The notes under the pieces: generated by a model | What the model saw: the letters and a program-made list of their open reading frames with translations, nothing else | Database searches by the model: none | What the model was told of the DNA's origin: nothing | NCBI GenBank assembly: GCA_030612725.1 | Contig: JAUWNJ010000022.1 | Span: 1 to 49,896, forward strand | DNA length: 49,896 nucleotides | Origin: Planctomycetales bacterium | GTDB lineage: Bacteria > Planctomycetota > Phycisphaerae > SM23-33 | Direction of reading: 5' to 3' | Shown: positions 6,276-22,428 of the stretch, piece after piece | How positions within the stretch are numbered: the first letter of the stretch is position 1 | How the letters are laid out: each line of letters starts with the position of its first letter | Position numbers and translations under genes: made by a program

Positions 6276-6316
6276 ACGCCGGAGCGGACTTTTCAAGTCC
6301 GCTCCGGCGTTTTTTT
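6276..6316 (+). terminator. Rho-independent terminator
   Basis: A 16-bp perfect stem (6276-6291 with 6295-6310), a TTC loop and TTTTTT immediately after, 20 bp beyond the prepilin stop. The minus-strand GH3-family gene ends right at its T-tract, but no T-run follows the stem in that direction. Confidence 0.93.
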
Positions 6317-7973
6317 ATCGCGAGTTCGGCAGGTCGTTGCTCTCAGAATCGCTGATTACATCGGTCATGAGGTACTTGTGTTTGTATTGTTCAGCCCGCC
6401 CCTGAGGGCCCGAGGCGTGGTCTTTGGTGAGATTTCCTACCTGTATGGTCTTCGCGCGTATCGGTCCGAGCCGACCTGTGCGACGCTTGGAATCGTATTC
6501 GACATTAAGCCCGCATAATGCCCGGTCCATCACATCTGCCAGCGTCTTGGCGTCAATTCCACCGGCTGATTCGAGGTGTAATTCGTAGTAGGGGGTCTCG
6601 TCGAAGTGTCCCTGCAGGACGAACTCATGGATACTCTCGCCGGTCTGTGCAGAGGCTGATTCCATGGCGCGGACTACCTGGTGCTCGGTAATCTTCTCAC
6701 CGGTGATTGAACAGGTGTGCAGGCCCTTAGAGAGGAATTCGAAGATTGGGCTGTCGCCTAGTTTACCCGTTACGCGAACGCGATCGTCGATGTTGTACCG
6801 CCACAGACCCGCCCAATTGGAAAACACGACGAAATACTCGCACCCCGGTTCGACTTCGTGTGCGCGGAACACGTCGGGGCAGTCCGATTCGATTTGATCG
6901 GCAGGGATGAACTCGAAAAAGTTGGACGTGATTTCGGCCACGCCGGCCGATGTATCGTCGGCCAGCGGGACCGACAGCCTTCCTTCGCTTGCAAGCAATC
7001 CCATGTCGCGGATGGGCACGCTGCCGTAGAATTTGCGGACGCTCGGAAGGTACAGCCCGACCGTTCCGCCCGTCCAGAGTAGCATGAAACTGAGGTTCCA
7101 GAAGTGTTTCGGTAGCAGTTGACCGTGTTGTCGTATGATTTCCTCAAGTCGTTTCGCAGCGGCCCGGTCCGGGCGGAACGAAACTCCGCCCATCGCCTTG
7201 ATTGATTTGGTGTTCGACAGGCTGATCGTGCCGTCATGGACGTCTCGGATGATTCGCTCTGCGTTGTCGCGTGCGATTTGGGCGAGTTTGACGGCGGTGG
7301 ACGGGTTTGGAGTGATGACGATACCAACGTCGTGAGCGATAGACGACCGCATGATGGCGTAGTATTTCTCGGCGGGGTCGGCGATGTCGTTGACCTGCGG
7401 CGGGACGGGGTACATTTTTTTGACGACCCATGGTTGGTGTTCTGCCAGCAGGCCGCTGATGGCCCCGCACGAAAGTCCGGTCGGGCTGACGTTTTCACAG
7501 GCAGGCGAACCTATCGTAACAATCTTCCTAAGCCATCCGCTGGGATGGTCCTTGAGCATCCGTATCCCGAAGACGTTCCATCCCCTGCGGTAATCGCTGA
7601 GGAATTGACTCGTAACGGGAATGTGCTTTGGCGTTCCGGTCGTACCGGAAGTAACGGCGAACATACGGATTTTCGTGCCCGCCGCAAACAGCGCTTCGAC
7701 CCGACCGGTCAGGACGTCGTCGATGTATTGGCGATGGTGTTCGTAATCGCTTATCGGAACGGCCGATTTGAAATCTTCGTATGAGCGGATGCTCTTGAAG
7801 TTGTGTTCGCGTCCGAATCTGCTACCGGAAGCGGCGGAAATAAGCCGATGTAGCAAAGCGTCCTGCACCTCGGCGGTATGCTTATGAGTGGCCAGGAACG
7901 CTCTTGCCTGAACCAAAGCACGCGTTCCGGCGATTCGAGCGGCGGGGCGCAGGAGTGTACGGGTGAGACTCAT
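6315..7973 (-). CDS. GH3-family acyl-acid-amido synthetase-like protein
   Basis: 552 residues over the whole GH3 family length (ANL adenylating superfamily). The ATP-binding loop SGTTGTPKHIP is at 109-119. Further on are the acyl-pocket region GAISGLLAEHQPW, the GTVGLYLPSVRKFYG segment, WAGLWRYNIDDRVRVTG (the conserved YxxxDxxxVxG-type motif) and SITGEKITEHQV before the mobile C-terminal domain. Plant members join amino acids to jasmonate or auxin through an acyl-adenylate. Bacterial members have no settled substrate. Its start overlaps the stop of the alpha/beta hydrolase in an ATGA, and both follow a ketoacyl-synthase/ACP operon. An acyl-amide lipid or a detached fatty acid as substrate is therefore plausible but inferred. 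Confidence 0.85.
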   Translation of the reverse strand: MSLTRTLLRPAARIAGTRALVQARAFLATHKHTAEVQDALLHRLISAASGSRFGREHNFKSIRSYEDFKSAVPISDYEHHRQYIDDVLTGRVEALFAAGTKIRMFAVTSGTTGTPKHIPVTSQFLSDYRRGWNVFGIRMLKDHPSGWLRKIVTIGSPACENVSPTGLSCGAISGLLAEHQPWVVKKMYPVPPQVNDIADPAEKYYAIMRSSIAHDVGIVITPNPSTAVKLAQIARDNAERIIRDVHDGTISLSNTKSIKAMGGVSFRPDRAAAKRLEEIIRQHGQLLPKHFWNLSFMLLWTGGTVGLYLPSVRKFYGSVPIRDMGLLASEGRLSVPLADDTSAGVAEITSNFFEFIPADQIESDCPDVFRAHEVEPGCEYFVVFSNWAGLWRYNIDDRVRVTGKLGDSPIFEFLSKGLHTCSITGEKITEHQVVRAMESASAQTGESIHEFVLQGHFDETPYYELHLESAGGIDAKTLADVMDRALCGLNVEYDSKRRTGRLGPIRAKTIQVGNLTKDHASGPQGRAEQYKHKYLMTDVISDSESNDLPNSR

Positions 7974-9061
7974 TGGCCGACCTTCGAGGCGTGTTCCATG
8001 ACGCCGGGTTTATCGGCGTGGAATGACCTTCCGGTGATCTTTTCGACGCCGATGTTTTCGTCAGCCAGGTGTTTGAGGAAAAAAGCGGTCGTCCTTGCGG
8101 CGTATTCCTCCGGCGCGGTCGTAACGGACTGATTATGCTTTGCTTTCGGGACGATCCAGAGGTACTTGGGTTGACCGGCTGAATGATAAAGCAGTTCGGC
8201 CTGGTCGGATCGGATGTAGCTGTCCCGTTGGCCATGGATGAGCATTATCGGGCGTGCAATCATATTCTCCAGCGCCTTGCGAACCGAGGGGAACCGTCTG
8301 CCAAGTTTTGGTTGTGCGAATCGCATCATGCACCAATTGAGGAATTTCCAGAATGCGTCGGGGTGGTTCTGATAGACCAGTTTGACGCGTGCGAAGATGG
8401 ACGCCCATCGTTTCATGAGTGTAACGAGCGTCTCGGCGGTGCTGAAGGCTCCGTCGCACATGATACACGAGATATTCGGGTCCGAACTTGCCGCCATAAT
8501 GGCGGCGCTTGCTCCCCGGCTGATACCGAATACGCCGATTCGCGTCGGTTCGCCCGCAGCCGAAAGCGTATCCTCCACGTAGGCGCATGCTCCGAGGGTG
8601 TCTTTCAGTTCCCGGTCCGAAGGCCACTGGAGCGGACGGTAGTTTTTGGATCGGCTGCTGTCGCCGTGCCCGCGGTAATCGAAAGAAAAAATGTCGAAAC
8701 CGGTTTCGAGGAGCGGGCGGGCGTATCGGGCGCAGCTGTACATATCAGAGCCAAACTCGTGGCAGAAGACGATGGTTCCCTCCTTGGGGGCAGGCTTTTG
8801 TCCGGAGTCGTTAGGCCTCCGAAGCCACATGCCCCGGAGGCTGACGCCGTCGAAACTGCGGAAGCGGACCTCCTCGCCCTGAATTACCTGAAAGTCCCTG
8901 GCGTCGATGGACAGCGGAAGGGGGGTGTCGGTGAAGATGTTCAGGCAGATACGGACGTACTTGGTCAGCATTAAAAGCGCAAACATCAGCAGGCTCATGC
9001 ACGTCGCTGCTATCGCCAGAGCCGCCCAGTTATGCGTTATAAATTGCCACAATGATACCAT
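7970..9061 (-). CDS. Membrane-anchored alpha/beta hydrolase
   Basis: 363 residues. One hydrophobic helix at about 14-33 anchors the protein, and the rest is an alpha/beta-hydrolase fold. The oxyanion region is VFCHEFGSDMYSC, followed by FDYRGHGDS. The nucleophile elbow GISRGAS has S181. The acid is probably the Asp of MLIHGQRDSYI, and the His that of PKAKHN near residue 317. It is likely a serine esterase, thioesterase or acyltransferase acting at the membrane. Its end overlaps the GH3-like gene by 4 nt, so the two are translationally coupled. About 215 bp containing repeats and an 18-bp palindrome separate it from the ketoacyl synthase upstream, so the pair may have a promoter of its own. 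Confidence 0.85.
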   Translation of the reverse strand: MVSLWQFITHNWAALAIAATCMSLLMFALLMLTKYVRICLNIFTDTPLPLSIDARDFQVIQGEEVRFRSFDGVSLRGMWLRRPNDSGQKPAPKEGTIVFCHEFGSDMYSCARYARPLLETGFDIFSFDYRGHGDSSRSKNYRPLQWPSDRELKDTLGACAYVEDTLSAAGEPTRIGVFGISRGASAAIMAASSDPNISCIMCDGAFSTAETLVTLMKRWASIFARVKLVYQNHPDAFWKFLNWCMMRFAQPKLGRRFPSVRKALENMIARPIMLIHGQRDSYIRSDQAELLYHSAGQPKYLWIVPKAKHNQSVTTAPEEYAARTTAFFLKHLADENIGVEKITGRSFHADKPGVMEHASKVGQ

Positions 9062-9100: not shown

Positions 9101-9290
9101 TATAGGGACCAGGGATTTGGGACTCGGGACGAGGGAAAAAAACGGAAAGCCAATCTGGTTTACCAATACTACTCTGCAGAGTAGTGATACTTCGCTACGC
9201 AGCACGAGTCAACCAATCTGTTGATTTGCGGATCAAAGATTTTTTGTTTTTTTTCCAGGTCCCCAATCCCAAGTCCCTAGTCCCTATCTG
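9101..9290. repeat. Inverted pair of TAGGGACT-type repeats around a perfect palindrome
   Basis: 9101-9137 reads TAGGGACCAGGGATTTGGGA and onward. 9260-9288 holds the reverse form (CCCAATCCCAAGTCCCTAGT). Between them, 9168-9185 is a perfect 18-bp palindrome, ACTACTCTGCAGAGTAGT. Similar TAGGGACT words occur at 67-100, 10561-10590 and 28669-28715. Apart from the end of the ketoacyl-synthase gene (from 9277) I see no coding sequence in this gap. Confidence 0.7.
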
Positions 9291-10563
9291 TGATGATCAA
9301 CGTGTCGTTTTGACCGCCGAAGCCGAAGGAATTGCTCATTATGATGTTGACGTCGGCCTTTCGGGATTCGTTGGGGATGTAGTCGAGGTCGCATTCCGGG
9401 TCGGGCGTGTTGAGGTGCATCGTCGGAGGAAGAATCTGGTCGCGCAAAGCCAGAACGCAGGCAATCAGTTCAGTTACGCCGGCAGCGGCGATGAGATGAC
9501 CAGCCGAGCCTTTGATGGACGAAATCGGCACTTTTTTCGCCAGGTCGCCGAAGACGACCTTTATCGCCCGTGTTTCGACCGAGTCGTTCTGTGGCGTGCT
9601 GGTTCCGTGTGCGGAGATGTAGTCTATCTGCTCGATAGTTACACCTGCGTCAGTCAGTGCTGCGAGCATACCTGCGGCAGCGCCGCTACCGTCCGGGTCC
9701 TGGTCGGTGATGCGGAAGGCATCGGCGCTGGAGCCGAAGCCGATGATTTCAGCCAGTATTTTCGCGCCGCGCCGGCGAGCGGATTCGTACTCTTCGAGTA
9801 TCAGGATTCCCGCGCCTTCGCCGAGGACGAATCCGTCGCGGGTAAGGTCGAACGGGCGCGAGGAGGTTTCCATTTCATCGTTGCGGGTTGACAGGGCGTT
9901 GAGGCGGTTGAAGCCCGTTACGCCGAAGGGGTGGATCATACTGTGCGCCCCGCCGGTCATCATTACGTCGGCATCGCCCCGGCGGATGATCATCGTCGCT
10001 TCGCCTATGGCCTGGGTGCTGGCGGCACAGGCGGTCAGGATGTTAAAGGCCGGTCCTTGAATGTTGAACTGTCCAGCCAGGTGCGAGACCACCATGTTGG
10101 CTTCCTGCTCCTGCTCGTGGTGAACGGTCATTCGCTCGAACGCCAGTTTCGCCCATCGGACGGTATCGAGTTTTCCGTCGTCGCCCCAGGCATCGACCAG
10201 CAGGGAGGTGAAGTTGTCGAAGTCCAGGCTCCCTTCGCCCGAACCGAGGTAGATGCCCATCCGTGCCGGGTCATGCCCGTTTGATTCGTCCAGACCGCAC
10301 TGGTTCCATGCTTCAAGAGCGGCTGCCAGGGCGAATCCGGTCTGCCTTCCGACATAGTCGTGTTTTCCGGTTTGGGCTAGGGCGTCAGGAAGTTGAAAAT
10401 CCTTTATCTGTGCGGCGAATGTCGTTGGAAACGTTTCGGCGTCGAACAGTTCGATGGCGCTGATAGCGCTTTTACCGGCAATCAAAGCCGACCATACCGA
10501 CTCGACATCACGCCCAAGCGGAGTAACGCATCCCATTCCGGTTATAACTACTCGTCGTTTCAC
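9277..10563 (-). CDS. Beta-ketoacyl-ACP synthase II-type (FabF-like)
   Basis: 428 residues, the full FabF length. It catalyses decarboxylative condensation of malonyl-ACP with acyl-ACP. All catalytic residues are present: Cys179 in LTACAAST, His319 in SAHGTSTPQND, and Lys351 and His356 in SSIKGSAGHLIAAAG. The start is GTG (10563), directly after a TAGGGACT-type repeat. It sits downstream of a second, non-canonical ketoacyl synthase, an ACP and two hotdog dehydratases on the same strand. With no reductase or malonyl transferase in view, I expect a specialised acyl chain borrowing the housekeeping enzymes. Confidence 0.92.
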   Translation of the reverse strand: MKRRVVITGMGCVTPLGRDVESVWSALIAGKSAISAIELFDAETFPTTFAAQIKDFQLPDALAQTGKHDYVGRQTGFALAAALEAWNQCGLDESNGHDPARMGIYLGSGEGSLDFDNFTSLLVDAWGDDGKLDTVRWAKLAFERMTVHHEQEQEANMVVSHLAGQFNIQGPAFNILTACAASTQAIGEATMIIRRGDADVMMTGGAHSMIHPFGVTGFNRLNALSTRNDEMETSSRPFDLTRDGFVLGEGAGILILEEYESARRRGAKILAEIIGFGSSADAFRITDQDPDGSGAAAGMLAALTDAGVTIEQIDYISAHGTSTPQNDSVETRAIKVVFGDLAKKVPISSIKGSAGHLIAAAGVTELIACVLALRDQILPPTMHLNTPDPECDLDYIPNESRKADVNIIMSNSFGFGGQNDTLIITDRD

Positions 10564-10591: not shown

Positions 10592-11905
10592 TCATTCGTA
10601 TCGTTTCAGCACAATGGCTGCATTTTGTCCGCCGGTGGTGTGCGTGCAGCAGAGGGCGTATTGCAATTTCGCGTCGGTCTGTTCTTTTGGAACATTAAGC
10701 CGACAGGCGTCGGCGGATTTCTCAAAATTAACCGCTGGCGGAACCGTCTGCTTGTGCAACGCCATTGCTGCGACGGACAGTTGAACCGCCCCTGCGCCGG
10801 CGAAGAGGTCTCCGAATCCGCCTGTCAACGGAACGACCGGAACGGTATCAGCTCGTTGGCCTAGTGTTTGGCGGATGGCATCGGCCTCGGCTGCATCTTC
10901 CGCCGGTACGCCCGTACCGTGAGGAATGATCAGGTCAATCTGCTCCGGCGAGATTCCGGCATCCGCGATGGCGGCCGATATCGCCCGCGCTTCCCCGTCG
11001 CCTTTGGGTTCTCCGAGATAGTTCATTCCTTCGGGGTTGTTTCCCGCCCCGAATCCGACGAATTCCGCATAAACCCGTGCGCCTCTACCGGAAGCGTGCG
11101 CCTTCTCTTCCAGGATAACCAGCCCACCGCCTTCGCCGATAACGGTCCCGTCGGCGTCTGCGTCGAATGGTTTGCACGCCTGGTCGGGGTTGTCGTTACC
11201 TGTGGTTGTAACCCGTTCAAGGAGCGTTTGCCGCATGAGGTTCATGGGGTTGACCTTGCTTTCGGCCCCTCCTGCGATAGCGGCGTCGGCGGAGCCACGG
11301 GCGATTGTCCTTGCTGCCTCACCGACTGCGAGATGCCCGGAGGCTTCGCCGCAGGTTATCGTATTGGAAGGTCCCTTGGTTCCGTGGATGATTGTTACGT
11401 GGCAGGCGAGCATATTGGGAAGATACTTCAGCAACCACAACGGCGTGAGGTTGCTTATTCCTTCGCGTCCCCATTTTTTGAAGTCGAATTTACCGTCGGT
11501 AACGGAGGTGTTAACAGCGGCTCCCAGTTCGTTCAGGTCGGCGCAGATAAGTCCGGCTCCGATGTTGCATCCGAAGCGGTCGGGGTTTATATCGACGGCG
11601 TTTTCGTCGATACCCTTGGTGGTTATACCGGCGTCGCGGACTGCCAAGTCGGCGGCGGCGACGGCAATCTCGATGTCGCGGGCCATTACCTTGACGGCTT
11701 TGCGATAAGAGCGGGGTACGAATTTGCGGGCGGAAAAGTCGTCCAACTGACCGGCGACCTGGCATCCGAAACCGGACGGGTCGAATAAGTCTATGCGTTT
11801 GACGCCTTGGGTCTTCGCGCAGATGTTCGCGAAGAGTTCTTCGATTCCGAGTCCGCCGGCTGTAACGACGCCCAGTCCTGTGATTACAACGCGGCGATCA
11901 TTCAT
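10592..11905 (-). CDS. Ketoacyl-synthase family protein with altered Lys/His motif
   Basis: 437 residues, thiolase-fold ketoacyl synthase. Cys185 (NTITCGEASG) and His329 (IIPHGTGVP) are kept. The segment that should contain the catalytic Lys and second His reads LTGGFGDLFAGAG, with Thr361 and Asp366 in their places. It may therefore be unable to decarboxylate malonyl-ACP, acting as a priming synthase, an acyltransferase or a partner subunit of the canonical synthase encoded next to it, in the manner of KS/chain-length-factor pairs. That is inference. Its ATG overlaps the stop of the upstream dehydratase gene (ATGA), indicating coupling. Confidence 0.87.
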   Translation of the reverse strand: MNDRRVVITGLGVVTAGGLGIEELFANICAKTQGVKRIDLFDPSGFGCQVAGQLDDFSARKFVPRSYRKAVKVMARDIEIAVAAADLAVRDAGITTKGIDENAVDINPDRFGCNIGAGLICADLNELGAAVNTSVTDGKFDFKKWGREGISNLTPLWLLKYLPNMLACHVTIIHGTKGPSNTITCGEASGHLAVGEAARTIARGSADAAIAGGAESKVNPMNLMRQTLLERVTTTGNDNPDQACKPFDADADGTVIGEGGGLVILEEKAHASGRGARVYAEFVGFGAGNNPEGMNYLGEPKGDGEARAISAAIADAGISPEQIDLIIPHGTGVPAEDAAEADAIRQTLGQRADTVPVVPLTGGFGDLFAGAGAVQLSVAAMALHKQTVPPAVNFEKSADACRLNVPKEQTDAKLQYALCCTHTTGGQNAAIVLKRYE

Positions 11906-12378
11906 TTGGCCGGTGTCTCCACAAACCCCGCAAGCAGGCGGAGGAACTGACCGGTGAAGACGAAGTTTTCTTCGGGGAATTTCGTACCGGCGAGATTCTG
12001 GTCAATGTGCGAGAACATCAGGTCGATTGTGCCGATGTCTTTACCGTTTTTCCAGACGGTTCCGTGGGTACTGGCTGCCTGATCGGTGATTGTTCCTATT
12101 TCGGTATGATATTTCAGTTGATCGCCGGGTACGACCGGTTCGCTGATTTCGACCTTGGAGATTTTGGCGAGAATGACTTTCTCGCGGAAGTCGCGCGCCT
12201 GCCCGACGAGTATTCCCGACGTCTGGGCCATTCCTTCGATCATCAGGGACACCGGCATGACCGGAAAGTCTTCCCAATGGTCGTGGAGGTGCTCTTCAGC
12301 CAACGAGACGTTCTTTACGGCAACGGCTGATACACCGGGTGAAAACTCCTCGAAACGATCAATCCAAATCCAACGCAT
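11902..12378 (-). CDS. Hotdog-fold 3-hydroxyacyl-ACP dehydratase-like protein (second copy)
   Basis: 158 residues of the FabZ/FabA type. The active-site stretch is HDHWEDFPVMPVSLMIEGMAQ-like (His34 and Glu48), against HFPGxPxMPGVLxxEA in FabZ. The Gly pair is changed, but His and Glu remain. It aligns without gaps in this region with the other hotdog protein of the operon (13476 start). Two such proteins in one operon suggest a heterodimer or different chain lengths. Upstream lies a 31-bp-arm hairpin separating it from the ACP gene; downstream it overlaps the variant ketoacyl synthase by 4 nt. Confidence 0.85.
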   Translation of the reverse strand: MRWIWIDRFEEFSPGVSAVAVKNVSLAEEHLHDHWEDFPVMPVSLMIEGMAQTSGILVGQARDFREKVILAKISKVEISEPVVPGDQLKYHTEIGTITDQAASTHGTVWKNGKDIGTIDLMFSHIDQNLAGTKFPEENFVFTGQFLRLLAGFVETPAK

Positions 12379-12502: not shown

Positions 12503-12892
12503 TTACCCGGCGGTTTTATTTTTGACGTAGTTGACGATCGTCTGGACCTTGAACAGTTCCGAGAGTTTGTTAACGTCGGGGTCCTGGTCGAAGTCGCCGA
12601 ATTCAACGTGCGGCATTGACTCTTTGAGTTTTACCAGTCCGACGTCGGTAACTTTTCCGTCGGCTACGAAATCGGGATTGTTAAGGACGTTGTCCGGGAA
12701 CAGGTCGCCGGGCGGTATCTTAATACCGAAGGTTTTCTCGAGTCTGAATACGATGTCCAGGAAGTCGATGGACTCTGCCCCAAGATCGCCCGTAAGCGTC
12801 GCATCGGGTGTAACTTCGTCGTCATCGACGCCGAGCGCTTCGGTGAGCGTTTCTGTAACCTTCTGGAAAACTTCATCATCTGTCATTGGCAT
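12503..12892 (-). CDS. Elongated acyl carrier protein
   Basis: 129 residues against about 80 for AcpP. Helix II begins at GDLGAESIDFLDIVF, with the 4'-phosphopantetheine Ser at 41; the usual D-S-L is E-S-I. After EKTFGIKIPP there is an insertion of about 45 residues (DLFPDNVLNNPDFVADGKVTD... to about 105) before the last helix, which ends FKVQTIVNYVKNK. AGGAGA stands about 9 nt before the ATG. It would carry the growing chain between the hotdog and ketoacyl-synthase enzymes of this operon. The extended loop may dock those partners; this is inference. Confidence 0.88.
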   Translation of the reverse strand: MPMTDDEVFQKVTETLTEALGVDDDEVTPDATLTGDLGAESIDFLDIVFRLEKTFGIKIPPGDLFPDNVLNNPDFVADGKVTDVGLVKLKESMPHVEFGDFDQDPDVNKLSELFKVQTIVNYVKNKTAG

Positions 12893-12975: not shown

Positions 12976-13476
12976 TCAATGCGAAGTTGCCGCTTTCAGC
13001 GCTTCGGAGCCGCCGATTAGTTTGAATCCTTCTTTCAGTTGGGCGATTATCCGCTCGTCGGCAGCCGATGCGGGGGCGAAGAAATCGGCGACGTTGAAAC
13101 TTTTCAGTTCAAACCGTCCCTGCACGGCGGTTTGCCCGTCGCCGACTGTTCCGATACCCTTGAATTTCGTGATGTCGCCTTCGGTCTTGAGTAGTTCGAC
13201 TTCGATTCGCAATATCCCGCCGGGCGCGACGAAGTTTCCGTAGCGGACGTTCCGCGCCGCTGACAGCACGACCATGCTTTTGGAAAAATCCTGCTCCAGT
13301 CGGACGAGCCAGGCGGCTGCCTGCACCATCGCTTCGAGCATCAGCACTCCGGGCATGACCGGAAATACGGGAAAATGATCCCCAAGGTACTCTTCCGCCA
13401 GCGAGAGCGCCTTGATACCGACGAGACGCTTTCCCGGCTCGATTTGTTCAATTTTGTCTATAAGGTGAAACTTCAT
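12976..13476 (-). CDS. FabZ-like 3-hydroxyacyl-ACP dehydratase
   Basis: 166 residues from the ATG at 13476, which begins MKFHLIDKIEQIEPGKR, the standard FabZ opening. A TTG 60 bp upstream would add an unlikely tail and overlap the predicted promoter. The active site HFPVFPVMPGVLMLEA holds His34 and Glu48, closer to FabZ than the second copy. The C-terminal extension of about 30 residues (FFAPASAADERIIAQLKEG...) is longer than in E. coli FabZ. The enzyme removes water from 3-hydroxyacyl-ACP in chain elongation. It is the first gene of the minus-strand lipid operon and diverges from nagB. Confidence 0.87.
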   Translation of the reverse strand: MKFHLIDKIEQIEPGKRLVGIKALSLAEEYLGDHFPVFPVMPGVLMLEAMVQAAAWLVRLEQDFSKSMVVLSAARNVRYGNFVAPGGILRIEVELLKTEGDITKFKGIGTVGDGQTAVQGRFELKSFNVADFFAPASAADERIIAQLKEGFKLIGGSEALKAATSH

Positions 13477-13507
13477 TGTGTCTGTCCATTTCCAATAGGG
13501 ATGACGC

Positions 13508-13536
13508 CTTTTATTCCATTTCGGTTTGTCAATCAA
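13508..13536 (-). promoter_or_regulatory. Candidate promoter of the lipid operon
   Basis: On the minus strand TTGATT (13531-13536), a 17-nt spacer and TAAAAG (13508-13513); both boxes match consensus at 4 of 6. A start near 13501 gives a 25-nt leader to the ATG at 13476. Confidence 0.45.
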
Positions 13537-14590: not shown

Positions 14591-16777
14591 ATGAAAATTT
14601 CACCGTTGAAATCTCTGGGTGCGAGTTTCATCCCCGAGCAGTTTCTCCCTGCCGGTAAGGATGAGTATTATCTGCGTAATCAGCAGTCGGGTAAACCGGC
14701 TGACGCCTGGCGGAACCTGCGTCCCGAAGAACTCGAAACGCTCGTCAAGAACGGAAACACTGCCGAGAATTGGGAAACCGTCCTGGTGGCCGATGAGTTC
14801 AGCCCGCACCAGGTGATAAACTGCCAGTTTTTCGGACTGGTACGCATAGGTCGGCTTGAGGAACTGGCATTGACCTATCACGACCTTTCCGTTCCGGTCG
14901 GTTTGAGCAACAGCCTGATTATCGACTGCGACATCGGCGACAACTCAGCCATTCACCACGTTCGATACCTCGCGCACTACATCATCGCCGACCATGTTAT
15001 CCTTCAGAACATTGATGAGATGCACGCCACGAATCACGCGAAGTTCGGAAACGGTATCATTAAGGACGGCGAGGACGAAGAAACGCGGGTCTGGTTGGAC
15101 CTGATAAACGAAGCCGGCGGGCGGAGCGTTATGCCGTTCGACGGGATGCTTCCGGCGGATGCGTATTTCTGGGCGAAATTCCGATCCGACGCCGACCTGC
15201 TAGAACGAATGGGGCAAATGACCCAGCAGATGTTCGACTCGCGCCGCGGATTTTACGGAACCGTCGGCGAAAACGGCGTCGTCAAAAACTGCCGAATCAT
15301 AAAAGACGTCAAAATCGGACCGGCTGCCTACGTCAAAGGCGCAAACAAACTCAAGAACCTCACAATCAACTCAAGCGCCGAAGAACCGACACAAATCGGC
15401 GAAGGCGTCGAACTGGTCAATGGAATCATCGGATACGCCTGTCATATTTTCTATGGATGCAAGGCGGTGCGATTCATCCTGGGCGATAACAGTTCCCTCA
15501 AGTACGGCGCGAGGCTGATACATTCGTATCTCGGCGACAACTCGACGGTCTCCTGCTGTGAATTGCTCAATAACCTGATATTCCCCGCCCATGAGCAGCA
15601 TCACAACAATTCGTTCCTTATCGCCTCGCTGGTAATGGGGCAGAGCAATATCGCCGCAGCGGCGACTATCGGCTCGAACCACAACTCCAGAGCGCCCGAC
15701 GGAGAAATCCAGGCCGGTAGGGGCTTCTGGCCTGGGCTTTGTACAAGCCTGAAGCATAACAGCCGGTTCGCCTCGTTCGTCCTGCCGGCCAAGGGGTCGT
15801 ACCCAGCCGAACTGGACGTTCCGCTTCCGTTCTGCCTCGTAAGTAACGACGTAGCAGCCGATCGCCTGACGCTGATGCCTGGATACTGGTGGCTTTATAA
15901 CATGTACGCTCTGGCGCGGAATTCGTGGAAGTTCCAGGCCCGCGACGCCCGCAAGCACAAACGCCAGAATGTCGAGTTCGATTCGCTCGCGCCCGACACT
16001 GCCGAGGAAATGCTCGCAGCAATGACCTTGCTGGAAGAGTGGACCGCCCAGGCGCACCTGTCGGCAAAGGGCGACTCACCGGACGAGAAAAACCCGGAAG
16101 AACCGGTAAAAATCGGGCGCGGACTTCTGACAGGACCGGCTGGGATTGTGGACAAACTGGAAATCATCGCGACGAACGTCGAAAACTCTCGTCGGAAGAC
16201 CGTTGTTCTCAAGGCCACTGAAGGCTATCGGGCCTACCGCCAGATGCTTCATTACTATGCGGTCAAAAACCTGATGTCCTACATGCAGCGCGACGGCGCA
16301 ACGTTGGAGTCGATGTGCGCCGAACTGACAGGTCCGCGCTGCCTGCGATGGATCAACCTCGGCGGGCAACTTATGACGGGCGATGATTTCGACGCCCTCT
16401 GCACCGAAATAAAATCCGGTAAAATCGCCGACTGGCACGGCGTCCACGAGCGATACGACGAACTGTGGGAAAAATATCCGCTCGATAAGCAGCGGCACGC
16501 CTTTGCAACGCTGCTGGAGTTGCTGGGCGCGGAAGAATTGACGAGCGAACTGTGGGCAGGTGCGCTGGATGAAGCCGTCGAGATTCAGCAATACATCTGC
16601 GAAGCGACCCGCACCAGCAGGGAAAAAGACTACGAAAATCACTTCCGTCAAATTACGTTCGAAACGCCCGAAGAAATGAAAGCGGTGGTCGGCGATATTG
16701 AAGACAATAGTTTTGTCAAACAGGTTTGTGAAGAGACGAAGGAATTTGAGAAATCAGCAATCTCACTTAAAAAATGA
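14591..16777 (+). CDS. DUF4954-family protein (left-handed beta-helix, sugar-nucleotide associated)
   Basis: 728 residues, the full length of the DUF4954 family found in Bacteroidetes, spirochaetes and planctomycetes. The middle third has hexapeptide-type turns (VKNCRIIKDVKIGPAAYVKG, IGEGVELVNGIIGYACHIFYG, LGDNSSLKYGARLIHSYLGDN), a left-handed beta-helix as in GlmU and LpxA. HHNNSF and IGSNHNSRAPDGE are family-specific His/Asn clusters that could bind an acyl or sugar donor. The C-terminal ~250 residues are helical. No signal peptide. The reaction is not established. Its place between nagB and an alternative GlmU points to UDP-amino-sugar or acyl-sugar metabolism. Confidence 0.87.
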   Translation: MKISPLKSLGASFIPEQFLPAGKDEYYLRNQQSGKPADAWRNLRPEELETLVKNGNTAENWETVLVADEFSPHQVINCQFFGLVRIGRLEELALTYHDLSVPVGLSNSLIIDCDIGDNSAIHHVRYLAHYIIADHVILQNIDEMHATNHAKFGNGIIKDGEDEETRVWLDLINEAGGRSVMPFDGMLPADAYFWAKFRSDADLLERMGQMTQQMFDSRRGFYGTVGENGVVKNCRIIKDVKIGPAAYVKGANKLKNLTINSSAEEPTQIGEGVELVNGIIGYACHIFYGCKAVRFILGDNSSLKYGARLIHSYLGDNSTVSCCELLNNLIFPAHEQHHNNSFLIASLVMGQSNIAAAATIGSNHNSRAPDGEIQAGRGFWPGLCTSLKHNSRFASFVLPAKGSYPAELDVPLPFCLVSNDVAADRLTLMPGYWWLYNMYALARNSWKFQARDARKHKRQNVEFDSLAPDTAEEMLAAMTLLEEWTAQAHLSAKGDSPDEKNPEEPVKIGRGLLTGPAGIVDKLEIIATNVENSRRKTVVLKATEGYRAYRQMLHYYAVKNLMSYMQRDGATLESMCAELTGPRCLRWINLGGQLMTGDDFDALCTEIKSGKIADWHGVHERYDELWEKYPLDKQRHAFATLLELLGAEELTSELWAGALDEAVEIQQYICEATRTSREKDYENHFRQITFETPEEMKAVVGDIEDNSFVKQVCEETKEFEKSAISLKK

Positions 16778-18235: not shown

Positions 18236-18490
18236 ATGCCCACAGTTGAACAACGTGTCAAGGAAGTAACCGCGCGGGTTTTGAAACTGAACCCGGAAGA
18301 TATTAAGATCGAGCACGATTTCATGTCCGATCTGGGTGCAGAGAGCGTGCAATCCATCGAACTGATGGCAATGTTTGAAGAGGAGTTCGGTATCGAGATG
18401 GATGAGGACGCCGCCCTGTCGGTCGAGACCATCGGCGGTGCAATCAAGTTCATCACCATGGTCTGTAAGGAACAGGGTGTAGATGTCTAG
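18236..18490 (+). CDS. Acyl carrier protein
   Basis: 84 residues, a standard-length ACP. Helix II motif SDLGAESVQSIELMAMFEEEF has the carrier Ser at 37; again Glu precedes the Ser, where most ACPs have Asp. The start ATG follows AAAGGGAAACAT. It carries acyl groups as a phosphopantetheine thioester. It is flanked by the GlmU-like gene and a Claisen-condensation-type enzyme, not by fatty-acid enzymes. The last six codons and the stop are repeated in tandem just after it (18491-18508). Confidence 0.93.
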   Translation: MPTVEQRVKEVTARVLKLNPEDIKIEHDFMSDLGAESVQSIELMAMFEEEFGIEMDEDAALSVETIGGAIKFITMVCKEQGVDV

Positions 18491-18508
18491 CAGGGTGTAG
18501 ATGTCTAG
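18473..18508 (+). repeat. 18-bp tandem duplication spanning the ACP stop codon
   Basis: CAGGGTGTAGATGTCTAG occurs twice head-to-tail, at 18473-18490 and 18491-18508. The first copy encodes QGVDV and TAG, so the second is untranslated. It looks like a recent slippage duplication. Confidence 0.95.
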
Positions 18509-18538
18509 TTAGATACGGAAATTTGGAAGTTCAGACTA

Positions 18539-19936
18539 ATGTCAGAGAAAAAGAAATTGCATCCTCTTGTTGAGGTGGACGAGCCGAACTTCATAACCGA
18601 GGCGTTCGATTATGATCTGCCACCGCTGATTCGCTTCGATTCGCCCGTCGTGGAGTACATCGACGGCGAACCGGTCCGGTTCGATCCGTCCGGCGTCAAG
18701 ACGCGGGACATCCATATTACCGACACCACCTTCCGCGACGGTCAGCAGGCCCGCCCGCCCTACACGATCGACCAGATGGTCCGTATCTACGACCTGATGG
18801 CAAGGATGAGCGGACCCAACCGCGTCATCCGGCAGACCGAGTTCTTCCTGTACACCAGGAATGATCGTGAGACACTTGACCGCTGCCGGGCGATGGGACA
18901 TTCCAGCCCCGAATGCACCGGATGGATCAGGGCGATCAAGGGCGACTTCCGACTGGTCAAGGACGCCCAACTGAAAGAAACCGGTATATTGACCAGTTGC
19001 TCGGATTACCACATCTTCAGCAAACTCAAGATCGACCGTAAAATGGCCATGGAGAGGTACTGCGACGTGGTCGATGCCGCTCTTGCAGCGGGCATCAGGC
19101 CCAGATGCCACCTGGAAGACATCACCCGCGCCGATATTGACGGGTTTGTCCTTCCGTTTGTCGAGAGGCTGATGGAGATGAGCGAGCAGGTTCCCGACGA
19201 GTTGAAGGTCAAGATACGCCTGTGCGACACGATGGGTTTCGGCATCAGTTACCCGGGCGCCGAGTTGCCCCGCAGCATCCCCAAACTTATCTACAAACTC
19301 AATGTCGAATGCGGCGTGCCGGGCGACCGACTGGAATGGCACGGACACAACGATTTCCACAAAGTTCACACCAACGGCGGAACGGCCTGGCTGTACGGCT
19401 GCGACGCCGTCAACACCACACTCTTCGGATTCGGCGAGCGAACCGGAAACCCGCCTTTGGAGGCGGCGATCTTCGAATACATCGCGCTGAAGGGCGACCT
19501 GTGCGGAATCGACACCACCGCCATTACGGAGTTGGCCGATTACATGCGGTCGATAGGGCTGCCGATTCCGGCCAACTACCCCTTTGTGGGAAAGCATTTT
19601 AACACGACCCGCGCCGGTATCCACGCCGGCGGTTTGCGACAGGATGAGCGTATATACAACATCTTCAATACGACCAAACTACTCGGCAGACCGCCGCGGG
19701 TTATCATAACCAATAACAGCGGCGCCGACGGCGTAGCCATATGGGTCAATGAATTCTTCGGCCTGACGGGCGAAGATCGACTCAATAAGATCAAGATCCA
19801 TCGCCTCGCACGCTGGGTCATGGACCAGTACGAACGTGAAGGCAGGATAACCGCCATCGGCGATGAGGAACTCGAGACCAAAGTCGAGGAACTTATGCCG
19901 GAGTACTGGGAAAAGTACAAAGGCAGCCGGGAGTAA
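18539..19936 (+). CDS. DRE-TIM metallolyase, Re-citrate-synthase/isopropylmalate-synthase-like
   Basis: 465 residues with the HMGL-like TIM barrel. DTTFRDGQQ at 62-70 carries the catalytic Arg66 and metal-binding Asp67. WHGHND has His268 and His270 as further metal ligands. GFGERTGNPP is the family's closing glycine loop. From memory of the family, sequences with the ITDTTFRDGQQ...PPYT opening group with Re-citrate synthases of anaerobes, which condense acetyl-CoA with oxaloacetate. 2-isopropylmalate- or homocitrate-type activity is also possible. It lacks the C-terminal LeuA regulatory domain. Its neighbours are an ACP on one side and an ADP-forming acyl-CoA synthetase and a second ACP on the other. 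Confidence 0.8.
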   Translation: MSEKKKLHPLVEVDEPNFITEAFDYDLPPLIRFDSPVVEYIDGEPVRFDPSGVKTRDIHITDTTFRDGQQARPPYTIDQMVRIYDLMARMSGPNRVIRQTEFFLYTRNDRETLDRCRAMGHSSPECTGWIRAIKGDFRLVKDAQLKETGILTSCSDYHIFSKLKIDRKMAMERYCDVVDAALAAGIRPRCHLEDITRADIDGFVLPFVERLMEMSEQVPDELKVKIRLCDTMGFGISYPGAELPRSIPKLIYKLNVECGVPGDRLEWHGHNDFHKVHTNGGTAWLYGCDAVNTTLFGFGERTGNPPLEAAIFEYIALKGDLCGIDTTAITELADYMRSIGLPIPANYPFVGKHFNTTRAGIHAGGLRQDERIYNIFNTTKLLGRPPRVIITNNSGADGVAIWVNEFFGLTGEDRLNKIKIHRLARWVMDQYEREGRITAIGDEELETKVEELMPEYWEKYKGSRE

Positions 19937-19988
19937 TTCCGGAAACAATCGTTAGACTTCCAAAGAGAACAAAAAGGGCAGAGAATCA

Positions 19989-22139
19989 ATGTCGAACACG
20001 ACAAGGTATTCCGTAGAAACAATCCCCGGCGGGTATCCACGCGACCGGATATTCAACCCTGTAAGCGTAGCCGTCATGGGCGTAACGCCTACGCCGGGAA
20101 CCGTTCCCTATGACATTTTCTACAACATCCTCGCCAGCGGTTATAAGGGCGTGCTTTATCCGGTAGCGCCGGGAAAGCGAAGTATTTCCTCCGTCCCCGC
20201 CTACCGTTACCTGACGGACATCAAGGACGATATTGACCTCGCAGTGATTGTTTTTCCGGCCAAGGTCGTCGCAAGGGCGCTTCGCCAGTGCGGCGAGAAG
20301 GGCGTCAAGGGCGTGATAATCATCTCGGCCGGTTTCCGAGAGGTCGGACCCGAAGGAGCAAAACGTGAGCAGGAAATAAAGGACATCTGCGCCGAGTACG
20401 ACATCTCGCTCGTCGGACCTAACTGCCTGGGCGTAGTGAACACCGACCCGAAAATAATGCTCAACGCCTCCTTTGCACGCAAAATGCCGGCCCAGGGAAG
20501 TATTGCGTTCCTCAGCCAGTCCGGCGCGCTTTGCACAGCCGTTCTCGATTACGCACGCAACAGGAACATCGGATTCTCCAAGTTCGTCAGTTTCGGTAAC
20601 AAGGCCGGCGTTACGGAAATGGGACTTCTGGACTACCTCCACCAGGACGAACAGACCGACGTGGTACTGCTGTACCTTGAGGAACTCCGCGACGGGCGCG
20701 CCCTGATAGAGACAGCCCGGCGTGTAACTCGCGGCGATAACCCCAAACCGATCCTCGCGATAAAGTCCGGAAGGACGCCCCAGGGCGCAGACGCCGCCAG
20801 CAGCCACACCGGTTCGCTCGCAGGTGAAGACGCCATATGCGAAGCCGTCTTCGCCGAAGCGGGTATCATCCGCCTGAACACCATCGAAGAACTGTTCGAC
20901 ACCGCCATCATGCTGACGAATCAGCCCATGCCTAAAGGCAACCGTCTGGCAATCGTTACCAACGCCGGCGGTCCGGGCGTGATGGCGACAGACTCCGCCG
21001 TAAATCTCGGGCTTGAGATTGCGCGTTTTGAACAGGCTACGACGGATAAACTCACCGATGCGCTTCCGGCTGCGGCCAATATAAAGAACCCCGTCGATGT
21101 CATCGGCGACGCACGGTCCGACCGATACGAAGCCGCTGTCGGCGCTGTTATGGACGACCCGAATGTTGACCAGGCGTTGGTGATTCTCACGCCGCAGTCG
21201 ATGACCGACATCGAGGAAATCGCACGCGGGATAGTCAAGGTCCACGAGCAGACGGACAAGCCCATGGCCTGTTCCTTTATCGGCGCTGCCGACGTAGCCG
21301 TCGGCGTCGATATCCTCCAGGCTGCTCATATCCCACACTACATCATGCCGGAATGGGCGTGCGGGGCAATGGCCGACGTGCAGCGGATACGCCGATGGCG
21401 AGAGTTGCCCGACGAAGCCGATTACCAGCCTCCGTCGGCTGACCGTGATGCCGCCGCCGCTATTATCGACGCCGCTCCCGCCGGTTATCTCGACGAGGAC
21501 CAGGCGATGACCGTGCTGAAGGCATACGGATTTCCCGTACCGGCTTGCAAACTTTGCCGCGATGCCGACGAAGCCGTCGAATTCGCCGAAAAAAACGGCT
21601 TCCCCGCAGTTATCCGCGTCGTCAGCCCGCAGATTATCCATAAGTTCGACGTCAAGGGCGTGGCCCTGGACCTCAAAGACGCCGATGCCGTTCGCAACGC
21701 CTATAACGACATGTTCAGACACATCAGCGAGGCGATGCCCGATGCCGAGATTAAGGGCGTGTTGGTTCGCGGGATGATCCCGGCTGGGCGAGAGGTAATC
21801 CTCGGCGCTAAGTACGATTCAGCCTTCGGACCGACGTTAATGTTCGGGCTTGGCGGGTTGTTCGTGGAGATATTCCGCGATGTAACGTTCGCCCTAGCGC
21901 CGATAACGCCGTTCACTGCCGCGAGAATGGTTCGCCAGGTCAAGGCCTTCGAACTGCTCGAAGGCGCGCGCGGTACAGGTCCAGCCGACGTGGACAGCGT
22001 GGAAGAATGCCTGTTGCGGCTTGGTCGGCTTGCGTTTGATTTTGAACGCATCGCCGAACTTGATATAAACCCGTTAATCGTCGGCCCCGCCGGACAGGGA
22101 AGCAACGTCGCCGACGTGAGAATCAGATTGAGTGAATAA
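19989..22139 (+). CDS. ADP-forming acetate/acyl-CoA ligase family protein
   Basis: 716 residues fusing the alpha and beta parts of the NDP-forming acyl-CoA synthetases. The CoA-binding domain is at about 20-150 (VAVMGVTPTPG, GPNCLGVVN). A succinyl-CoA-ligase-like domain carries the phosphorylated His273 in SSHTGSLAGE. An ATP-grasp domain runs from about residue 490 (PVPACKLCRDADEAVEFAEKNGFPAVIR, FGLGGLFVEIFRDVTFALAP). It interconverts acyl-CoA and ADP/Pi with acid, CoA and ATP. The acid is unknown. It follows the Re-citrate-synthase-like gene by 52 bp and precedes an ACP by 43 bp, so the four genes read as one transcript. Confidence 0.9.
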   Translation: MSNTTRYSVETIPGGYPRDRIFNPVSVAVMGVTPTPGTVPYDIFYNILASGYKGVLYPVAPGKRSISSVPAYRYLTDIKDDIDLAVIVFPAKVVARALRQCGEKGVKGVIIISAGFREVGPEGAKREQEIKDICAEYDISLVGPNCLGVVNTDPKIMLNASFARKMPAQGSIAFLSQSGALCTAVLDYARNRNIGFSKFVSFGNKAGVTEMGLLDYLHQDEQTDVVLLYLEELRDGRALIETARRVTRGDNPKPILAIKSGRTPQGADAASSHTGSLAGEDAICEAVFAEAGIIRLNTIEELFDTAIMLTNQPMPKGNRLAIVTNAGGPGVMATDSAVNLGLEIARFEQATTDKLTDALPAAANIKNPVDVIGDARSDRYEAAVGAVMDDPNVDQALVILTPQSMTDIEEIARGIVKVHEQTDKPMACSFIGAADVAVGVDILQAAHIPHYIMPEWACGAMADVQRIRRWRELPDEADYQPPSADRDAAAAIIDAAPAGYLDEDQAMTVLKAYGFPVPACKLCRDADEAVEFAEKNGFPAVIRVVSPQIIHKFDVKGVALDLKDADAVRNAYNDMFRHISEAMPDAEIKGVLVRGMIPAGREVILGAKYDSAFGPTLMFGLGGLFVEIFRDVTFALAPITPFTAARMVRQVKAFELLEGARGTGPADVDSVEECLLRLGRLAFDFERIAELDINPLIVGPAGQGSNVADVRIRLSE

Positions 22140-22146
22140 AGTCAGT

Positions 22147-22166
22147 AGGGCGGGCCTTGCCCGCCC
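22147..22166. repeat. GGGCGGGC / GCCCGCCC hairpin
   Basis: A GC-rich stem around CTT in the 43-bp gap between the acyl-CoA ligase and the third ACP. It ends before the ribosome-binding site. It belongs to the common intergenic palindromes of this genome. Confidence 0.7.
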
Positions 22167-22182
22167 ACAAATGGAGAAAAGT

Positions 22183-22428
22183 ATGGAAAAGAGTGAAATT
22201 ACCGAGCGTGCTATCAAGGTAACTTGCGAAGTTCTGAACGTTACGTCTGATATGGTTACGCCCGAAAGCGATTTTGTGTTTGACCTGGGCGCTGAGAGTA
22301 CCCAGTCGGTTCAACTGGTCGCCGCCTTCGACGAAGAATTCGACATCAACATGGACGCCGAGGACGCACTGGAAGTCCAGACCGTCGGCGACGCCATCGA
22401 ATTCATCGAAAAGTACGTCAATAAATAA
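22183..22428 (+). CDS. Acyl carrier protein
   Basis: 81 residues from the ATG at 22183, selected because GGAGA sits 7 nt upstream and the length is then typical. Earlier in-frame starts (22132, 22171) would run through the GC-rich hairpin or lose the binding site. Helix II, DLGAESTQSVQLVAAFDEEF, has the phosphopantetheine Ser at 39. It is similar along its length to the ACP at 18236, as if the two arose by duplication around the Claisen enzyme and ligase pair. Confidence 0.92.
   Translation: MEKSEITERAIKVTCEVLNVTSDMVTPESDFVFDLGAESTQSVQLVAAFDEEFDINMDAEDALEVQTVGDAIEFIEKYVNK

What the first reader, a model, noticed from the sequence alone, without database searches (positions are those of the whole stretch)
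10592..11905. Ketoacyl synthase with Cys kept but Lys and second His lost
Cys185 and His329 are in place, but the KxxxxGH motif reads TGGFGD (Thr361, Asp366). The adjacent synthase has the complete set. This suggests a KS/partner pair or a priming enzyme without malonyl decarboxylation.
Basis: partly seen in the sequence, partly recalled or inferred. Interest (0 to 1): 0.5.

Follow-up and report, generated by a model that had tools for sequence, protein, structure and literature searches.

The report
Non-catalytic partner of planctomycete ketosynthase
This gene makes a fatty-acid-type synthase subunit that has lost its own chemistry, apparently so that it can hold the carrier protein for its active neighbour; planctomycetes keep the pair widely, and some lineages still show the stage before the chemistry was lost.

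Summary
The gene is real but on the minus strand (11905..10592), in an operon FabZ1-ACP-FabZ2-KSbeta-KSalpha. The headline observation is wrong in its main point: the catalytic cysteine is not kept. Between two conserved anchors the alignment has no gap (39 residues in 100 of 100 KSbeta and 87 of 87 KSalpha), and the nucleophile position (FabF Cys163) holds Glu187; Cys185 lies two residues before it. The losses of Lys and second His (Thr361, Asp366) are confirmed. Across 100 homologues the nucleophile position is Glu or Asp in 93, Cys in none. So this is a chain-length-factor-like, non-condensing KSbeta, not a Cys-bearing priming enzyme. The adjacent KSalpha is complete.

Beyond the question: the basic ACP-docking pair of FabF (Lys65/Arg68) is kept in 100 of 100 KSbeta but 1 of 87 KSalpha, the reverse of the catalytic residues. 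In FabF most ACP contacts come from the monomer opposite the acylated site, so KSbeta probably docks the ACP that feeds KSalpha. In one planctomycete family KSbeta still has the full catalytic set while KSalpha has already lost the dock. Glu-type KSbetas are probably among five ketosynthases reported all essential in Planctopirus limnophila. Biochemistry and product are untested.

The parts
10592..11905 (-). KSbeta: chain-length-factor-like ketosynthase homologue; Glu187 at nucleophile position, Cys185 two residues before, His329 kept, Thr361/Asp366/Thr424 in place of Lys/His/gate Phe; Lys69, Lys72, Pro155, Trp157 = kept ACP-docking surface
9277..10563 (-). KSalpha: complete ketosynthase (Cys179, His319, Lys351, His356), docking pair lost; starts 28 nt after KSbeta
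11902..12378 (-). FabZ2: FabA/FabZ-type hot-dog dehydratase; overlaps the KSbeta start by 4 nt
   Evidence: directly before KSbeta in 63 of 69 loci with room
12503..12892 (-). ACP with DLGAES Ser41 motif and an insert of about 45 residues between helix II and the C-terminal helix, conserved in the family
   Evidence: (95 sequences, median 131 aa), model
12976..13536 (-). FabZ1: second FabA/FabZ-type dehydratase, first gene of the conserved five; the true start may lie downstream of this TTG
7970..9061 (-). alpha/beta hydrolase, downstream, found in close relatives only
   Evidence: present in 3 of 62 loci with room
6315..7973 (-). GH3-family protein, downstream, overlapping the hydrolase by 4 nt; close relatives only
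   Evidence: NCBIfam OlsH far below cut-off; seen in 3 further loci

Best explanation
The protein is the non-condensing KSbeta subunit of a KSalpha-KSbeta heterodimer, working like a chain-length factor, in a second type II fatty-acid/polyketide-like elongation system of planctomycetes. Shown from sequence: KSbeta has no nucleophile and has lost Lys, second His and gate; KSalpha keeps the full set; the genes are adjacent and co-inherited; KSbeta keeps, and KSalpha has lost, the FabF-type ACP-docking surface. Inferred: the two form a heterodimer; the ACP docks on KSbeta and reaches across the dimer into KSalpha's active site; KSbeta also shapes the acyl tunnel. Condensation by KSalpha would be followed by a ketoreductase encoded elsewhere and by FabZ1/FabZ2 on the operon's own long ACP. 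The product is unknown, but an essential acyl chain is more likely than a dispensable metabolite.
For: Ungapped placement of Glu187 at the nucleophile; E 68, D 25, A 5, Q 1, S 1 of 100, Cys 0. Catalytic C-H-K-H complete in 0 of 100 KSbeta and 87 of 87 KSalpha; both docking residues basic in 100 of 100 KSbeta and 1 of 87 KSalpha; the FabF Pro131 and Phe133 positions are Pro and Trp in 100 of 100 KSbeta, scattered in KSalpha. PMC7138838 (passages): most ACP contacts come from the KS monomer not crosslinked; K65E and K65A/K69A reduce crosslinking. PMC8358021 (passages): two Arg of the CLF ApeC are proposed to bind ACP. Adjacency 74 of 76. Sister clades. Fold is full-length FabF-like. Own genome has a separate FabG-ACP-FabF set on another contig.
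Against: No heterodimer was modelled or measured. Region 2 of the FabF docking surface (Arg127, Lys128, Arg206) is not kept in KSbeta. In two actinomycete KS-CLF pairs the R68/K69-type residues lie on the KS, not the CLF, so the rule is not general. In the Planctomycetia loci examined KSbetas are not next to KSalpha. Two of 76 loci lack an adjacent KSalpha. First His and Lys are still kept in 45 and 62 of 100, which simple decay does not explain. The invariant Cys185 has no explanation here.
Confidence: 0.75

Rival explanations
1. Cys-dependent priming or acyl-transfer enzyme: Cys185 accepts an acyl chain although Lys and second His are gone.
For: Cys185 is invariant in 100 of 100 near homologues, in a family where 55 of 437 columns are invariant in a 30-sequence sample.
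Against: Cys185 is at the FabF Thr161 position, two residues before the nucleophile, with no gap to move it; Glu187 fills the nucleophile position; more distant KSbetas have Ser 7, Leu 6, Gln 2, Ile 1 of 16 there and Ala in L138-L140.
Confidence: 0.06
2. KSQ-like malonyl-ACP decarboxylase: the acidic residue replaces the Gln of KSQ domains (recalled) and the protein makes acetyl-ACP primer for KSalpha.
For: Acidic residue conserved in 93 of 100 and 15 of 16 Planctomycetia homologues; first His and Lys kept in 45 and 62 of 100.
Against: The second decarboxylation His is kept in 5 of 100 (Asp366 here) and Lys is Thr361 here; 21 of 100 keep none of C-H-K-H. The need for both His in decarboxylation is stated in PMC2649909 (passages).
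Confidence: 0.07
3. Homodimeric pseudo-ketosynthase that binds the long ACP as a scaffold or sequestering regulator, without a heterodimer.
For: Docking surface strongly kept; in Planctomycetia the KSbetas are encoded away from KSalpha, and G227 has two copies.
Against: KSalpha has lost its own docking pair in 86 of 87, which a self-sufficient homodimer should not; adjacency in 74 of 76 loci.
Confidence: 0.12

Closest known systems
Actinobacterial ketosynthase/chain-length factor (e.g. actinorhodin KS-CLF, PDB 1tqy)
   Same: Adjacent complete KS plus a partner without the nucleophile; His residues lost or being lost; ACP in the operon; same fold
   Different: Nucleophile position is Glu/Asp, not Gln; dehydratases and no cyclases in the operon; KSbeta is sister to its own KSalpha in the tree, though a common origin with CLF is not rejected (AU p 0.29); the basic docking residues lie on the partner
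Aryl polyene ApeO-ApeC and ishigamide Iga11-CLF, highly reducing type II pairs
   Same: KS plus degenerate partner with ACP (and, for aryl polyene, dehydratases); ApeC Arg30/Arg31 proposed for ACP binding (PMC8358021, passages)
   Different: ApeC is about half size (240 aa in L188), this KSbeta is full length; no ketoreductase, ligase or export genes in the five-gene operon
R. baltica FabF paralogues NP_865682 (Asp163) and NP_866153 (Glu163), Rattray et al. 2009
   Same: Acidic residue in place of Cys163, first His kept, second His replaced by Asn in one (PMC2649909 Table 2)
   Different: Reported as unusual paralogues in a ladderane survey; no pairing, docking or evolutionary order in the parts I read. 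That they are the same family is my inference from matching Planctomycetia sequences
Anammox non-canonical FabF/FabB (Kuste3606, 2805, 3348)
   Same: Planctomycete lipid clusters with canonical plus degenerate KS
   Different: Other residues (Val, Phe, Ser at 163); the 18 KS from Brocadiales-like genomes in the tree fall outside the KSalpha/KSbeta clade

Membership tests
Condensing ketosynthase (FabF/FabB, KAS I/II) | Cys nucleophile plus His, Lys, His | tested here: not met
   E187, H329, T361, D366; 0 of 100 homologues complete
Condensing ketosynthase (FabF/FabB, KAS I/II) | NCBIfam fabF (TIGR03150) curated cut-off | tested here: not met
   310.9 bits against 493.75; the complete KSalpha also misses it, 469.8 bits
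Ketosynthase fold (Pfam PF00109/PF02801) | Both domains above gathering score; full-length fold | tested here: met
   128 and 81.6 bits, cut-off 20.8; Z 61.6, rmsd 2.9 over 389 residues to 1j3n
KSbeta / chain-length factor (actinobacterial type) | Gln at the nucleophile position | tested here: not met
   Glu187; Gln in 1 of 100 homologues
KSbeta / chain-length factor (actinobacterial type) | Encoded next to a complete KS | tested here: met
   74 of 76 loci
KSbeta / chain-length factor (actinobacterial type) | Same clade as annotated CLFs | tested here: inconclusive
   Two CLF references fall elsewhere on long branches; joint clade not rejected, AU p 0.29
KSbeta / chain-length factor (any) | Forms a heterodimer with the KS | not testable with these tools
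   Only single chains can be folded here
KSQ decarboxylase | Gln at the nucleophile position with both His kept (recalled definition) | tested here: not met
   Glu187 and Asp366
Ladderane-cluster non-canonical FabF | Groups with KS of Brocadiales-like genomes | tested here: not met
   Separate clades; 18 of 35 extracted KS were used

The most novel reading that the evidence does not exclude
Planctomycetes preserve, step by step, how a chain-length-factor-type subunit arises. After duplication of an active ketosynthase, the alpha copy first lost its ACP-docking surface, which made the copies depend on each other and starved the beta active site of ACP; beta then lost its nucleophile (to Asn/Ser in f40, to Asp/Glu elsewhere) and later His, Lys and gate. 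One family (f28, 5 of 5 genomes) still stands at the intermediate stage, with a catalytically complete beta and a dock-less alpha. The pair serves an essential lipid pathway, independently of actinobacterial polyketide systems.
Probability: 0.45. Interest if true: 0.68.

Novelty: new variant of a known kind. Interest (0 to 1): 0.52.

Why it matters
How type II polyketide KS-CLF pairs arose from a fatty-acid synthase is usually argued from deep trees. Here a living series, with the docking loss and the catalytic loss separable in different lineages, makes the order of events directly testable with purified proteins. It also gives a reading to the Asp/Glu-for-Cys ketosynthases noted in a planctomycete in 2009, and together with published essentiality data it points to an unknown, essential acyl product in this phylum.

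Tried and rejected
The gate residue was also taken off register; the count used here is.

Lineage-specific duplication in f28 (its two synthases as each other's nearest kin): AU p 0.027, only moderately rejected. Common clade of KSbeta with actinomycete CLF: not rejected, p 0.29, so independent origin is not claimed as shown.

Ladderane KS as nearest kin: not supported by the tree. A conserved tailoring gene set: looked for by clustering neighbours; beyond the five genes few families recur widely, so the product could not be read from context; the GH3 and hydrolase genes are local.

A first adjacency count (60 of 76) missed KSalpha reading frames whose called start overlaps KSbeta; one search allows for this (74 of 76).

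Literature searches for earlier description. In those listings only Rattray 2009 describes the substituted paralogues, and I found no description of the pair, the docking asymmetry or the f28 state. Most subscription papers are not held.

Limits: KSbeta homologues were taken by similarity to the query; reading frames under 380 aa, duplicates and the window's own copies were dropped. Long rows were cut to their last 450-470 residues for alignment. The class name Planctomycetia for family f35 rests on the P. limnophila match; for the other families in the 16-row KSbeta and 7-row KSalpha groups it is my label. G108 was searched but not fetched.

Full report
What is there. The reported span holds a 437-aa ketosynthase homologue on the minus strand, inside the run FabZ1 (13536-12976), ACP (12892-12503), FabZ2 (12378-11902), KSbeta (11905-10592), KSalpha (10563-9277), then an alpha/beta hydrolase and a GH3 protein. 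FabZ2 and KSbeta overlap by 4 nt and KSalpha starts 28 nt after KSbeta. The window's genome (3.16 Mb, 65 contigs) has a separate FabG-ACP-FabF set on contig C31, so this is a second system.

The observation. The Lys and second His are gone as stated (Thr361, Asp366). The Cys is not kept. HMMER's alignment to E. coli FabF C163Q and a joint alignment with FabF, FabB, KSalpha and two actinomycete KS-CLF pairs place Glu187 opposite Cys163 of FabF, Cys179 of KSalpha and the Gln of CLF. Cys185 is opposite FabF Thr161. Between the GPS and AGGAE anchors every one of 100 KSbeta and 87 KSalpha sequences has 39 residues, so no gap moves Cys185 into place. In the predicted structure (mean pLDDT 88.8, pTM 0.91) the helix starting at the nucleophile begins at residue 186, and the fold is that of FabF over its whole length.

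How the family behaves. Among 100 distinct homologues the nucleophile position is E 68, D 25, A 5, Q 1, S 1. The first His is kept in 45, Lys in 62, the second His in 5 and the gate Phe in 6; 21 keep none of Cys, His, Lys, His. In the neighbouring KSalpha all four are kept in 87 of 87. KSalpha follows KSbeta in 74 of 76 loci with enough sequence; 4 of 80 were too short to tell. Of the 60 genomes searched (the window's own included), 57 have a match to KSbeta better than E 1e-70, some of them partial; the other three are 69 to 86 percent complete (the threshold is mine). In a spread of 118 genomes of the phylum, 24 have a best match above 355 bits (score only, not all classified).

The docking asymmetry. 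In the AcpP-FabF crosslinked structure, Lys65, Arg68 and Lys69 form region 1 of the ACP contact and Ile129-Phe132 belong to the hydrophobic patch, and most contacts come from the monomer that is not crosslinked (PMC7138838, passages read). The positions of Lys65 and Arg68 are both basic in 100 of 100 KSbeta, 16 of 16 Planctomycetia-type KSbeta and 4 of 4 f28 KSbeta, but in 1 of 87 KSalpha, 0 of 7 Planctomycetia-type KSalpha and 0 of 4 f28 KSalpha. The position of Pro131 is Pro in 100 of 100 KSbeta and in 22 of 87 KSalpha; that of Phe133 is Trp in 100 of 100 KSbeta. Net charge of the region-1 stretch averages +4.66 in KSbeta and +0.68 in KSalpha. Four housekeeping-type FabF from these genomes keep the basic residues. 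Region 2 of the FabF surface is not kept in KSbeta. The simplest reading is a heterodimer with the ACP dock on KSbeta and the chemistry on KSalpha. That the two subunits meet, and that the geometry is as in FabF, is inference.

Evolution. In a maximum-likelihood tree of 101 ketosynthases KSalpha (28 rows, 100/99) and KSbeta (43 rows, 100/96) are sister clades within one planctomycete clade (71 rows, 99/99), outside FabF. In both, four genomes of family f28 branch first, and their KSbeta has the complete set Cys-His-Lys-His-Phe; a fifth f28 genome, not in the tree, agrees. Holding the eight f28 sequences together, as a recent duplication would require, is rejected at p 0.027. Next comes the KSbeta of family f40: its three genomes have Asn, Ser and Asn at the nucleophile (one of the three was in the tree); then the mostly Asp/Glu forms. 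Because f28 KSalpha already lacks the dock while its KSbeta is catalytically complete, the dock seems to have been lost on alpha before catalysis was lost on beta. The sample for the intermediate is small (5 genomes). A shared origin with actinomycete CLF is not rejected (p 0.29).

Is it needed? A transposon study of Planctopirus limnophila (PMC10632474; [quoted passage not shown] Genome G227 has contigs of 5,423,075 and 37,010 bases, which add up to the published genome length 5,460,085 with a 37,010-bp plasmid (PMC3035269, passages; the same paper prints 5,460,075 for the chromosome in another place). It has five stand-alone ketosynthases: a FabF, a KSalpha without dock, two KSbetas with Glu at the nucleophile, and one divergent complete KS, besides larger multidomain frames. 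That these five are the published five is my inference; I did not see the supplementary list.

What is known. Rattray et al. 2009 (PMC2649909; abstract, passages and the comparative section read) noted two R. baltica FabF paralogues with Asp and Glu for Cys163 and took such paralogues to have a different substrate and function. CLF-type partners are long known. The pairing, the reciprocal docking/catalysis pattern and the f28 intermediate were not found in the searched library.

Verdict. A conserved, probably essential, non-catalytic KSbeta of chain-length-factor kind, with an acidic residue instead of Gln: a new variant of a known kind.

Noticed in passing
window 12503-12892 (-): The operon's ACP carries an insert of about 45 residues between helix II and the last helix, conserved across 95 homologues including Planctomycetia-type and f28 genomes; the model gives it short helices.
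   Followed up: partly
window 10592-11905 (-), residue Cys185: Cys185, two residues before the nucleophile position, is invariant in 100 of 100 near KSbeta homologues where KSalpha has Thr in 87 of 87; its role is unexplained.
   Followed up: partly
window 18236-22428 (+): A divergent neighbouring run: small ACP, HMGL-like (isopropylmalate/homocitrate-synthase-like) protein, ADP-forming acyl-CoA-ligase-like protein and another ACP. The first three stand beside the FabZ1 operon also in L004 and L005. An unusual ACP-linked set.
   Followed up: no
L141; G227:C1:3333195-3336619: In two Planctomycetia-type genomes a Glu-type KSbeta is encoded next to the housekeeping FabF rather than next to KSalpha, so KSbeta may have more than one partner there.
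   Followed up: no
window 14591-16777 (+): 728-aa protein with DUF4954 beside a sugar nucleotidyltransferase-like protein and NagB; function unclear.
   Followed up: no
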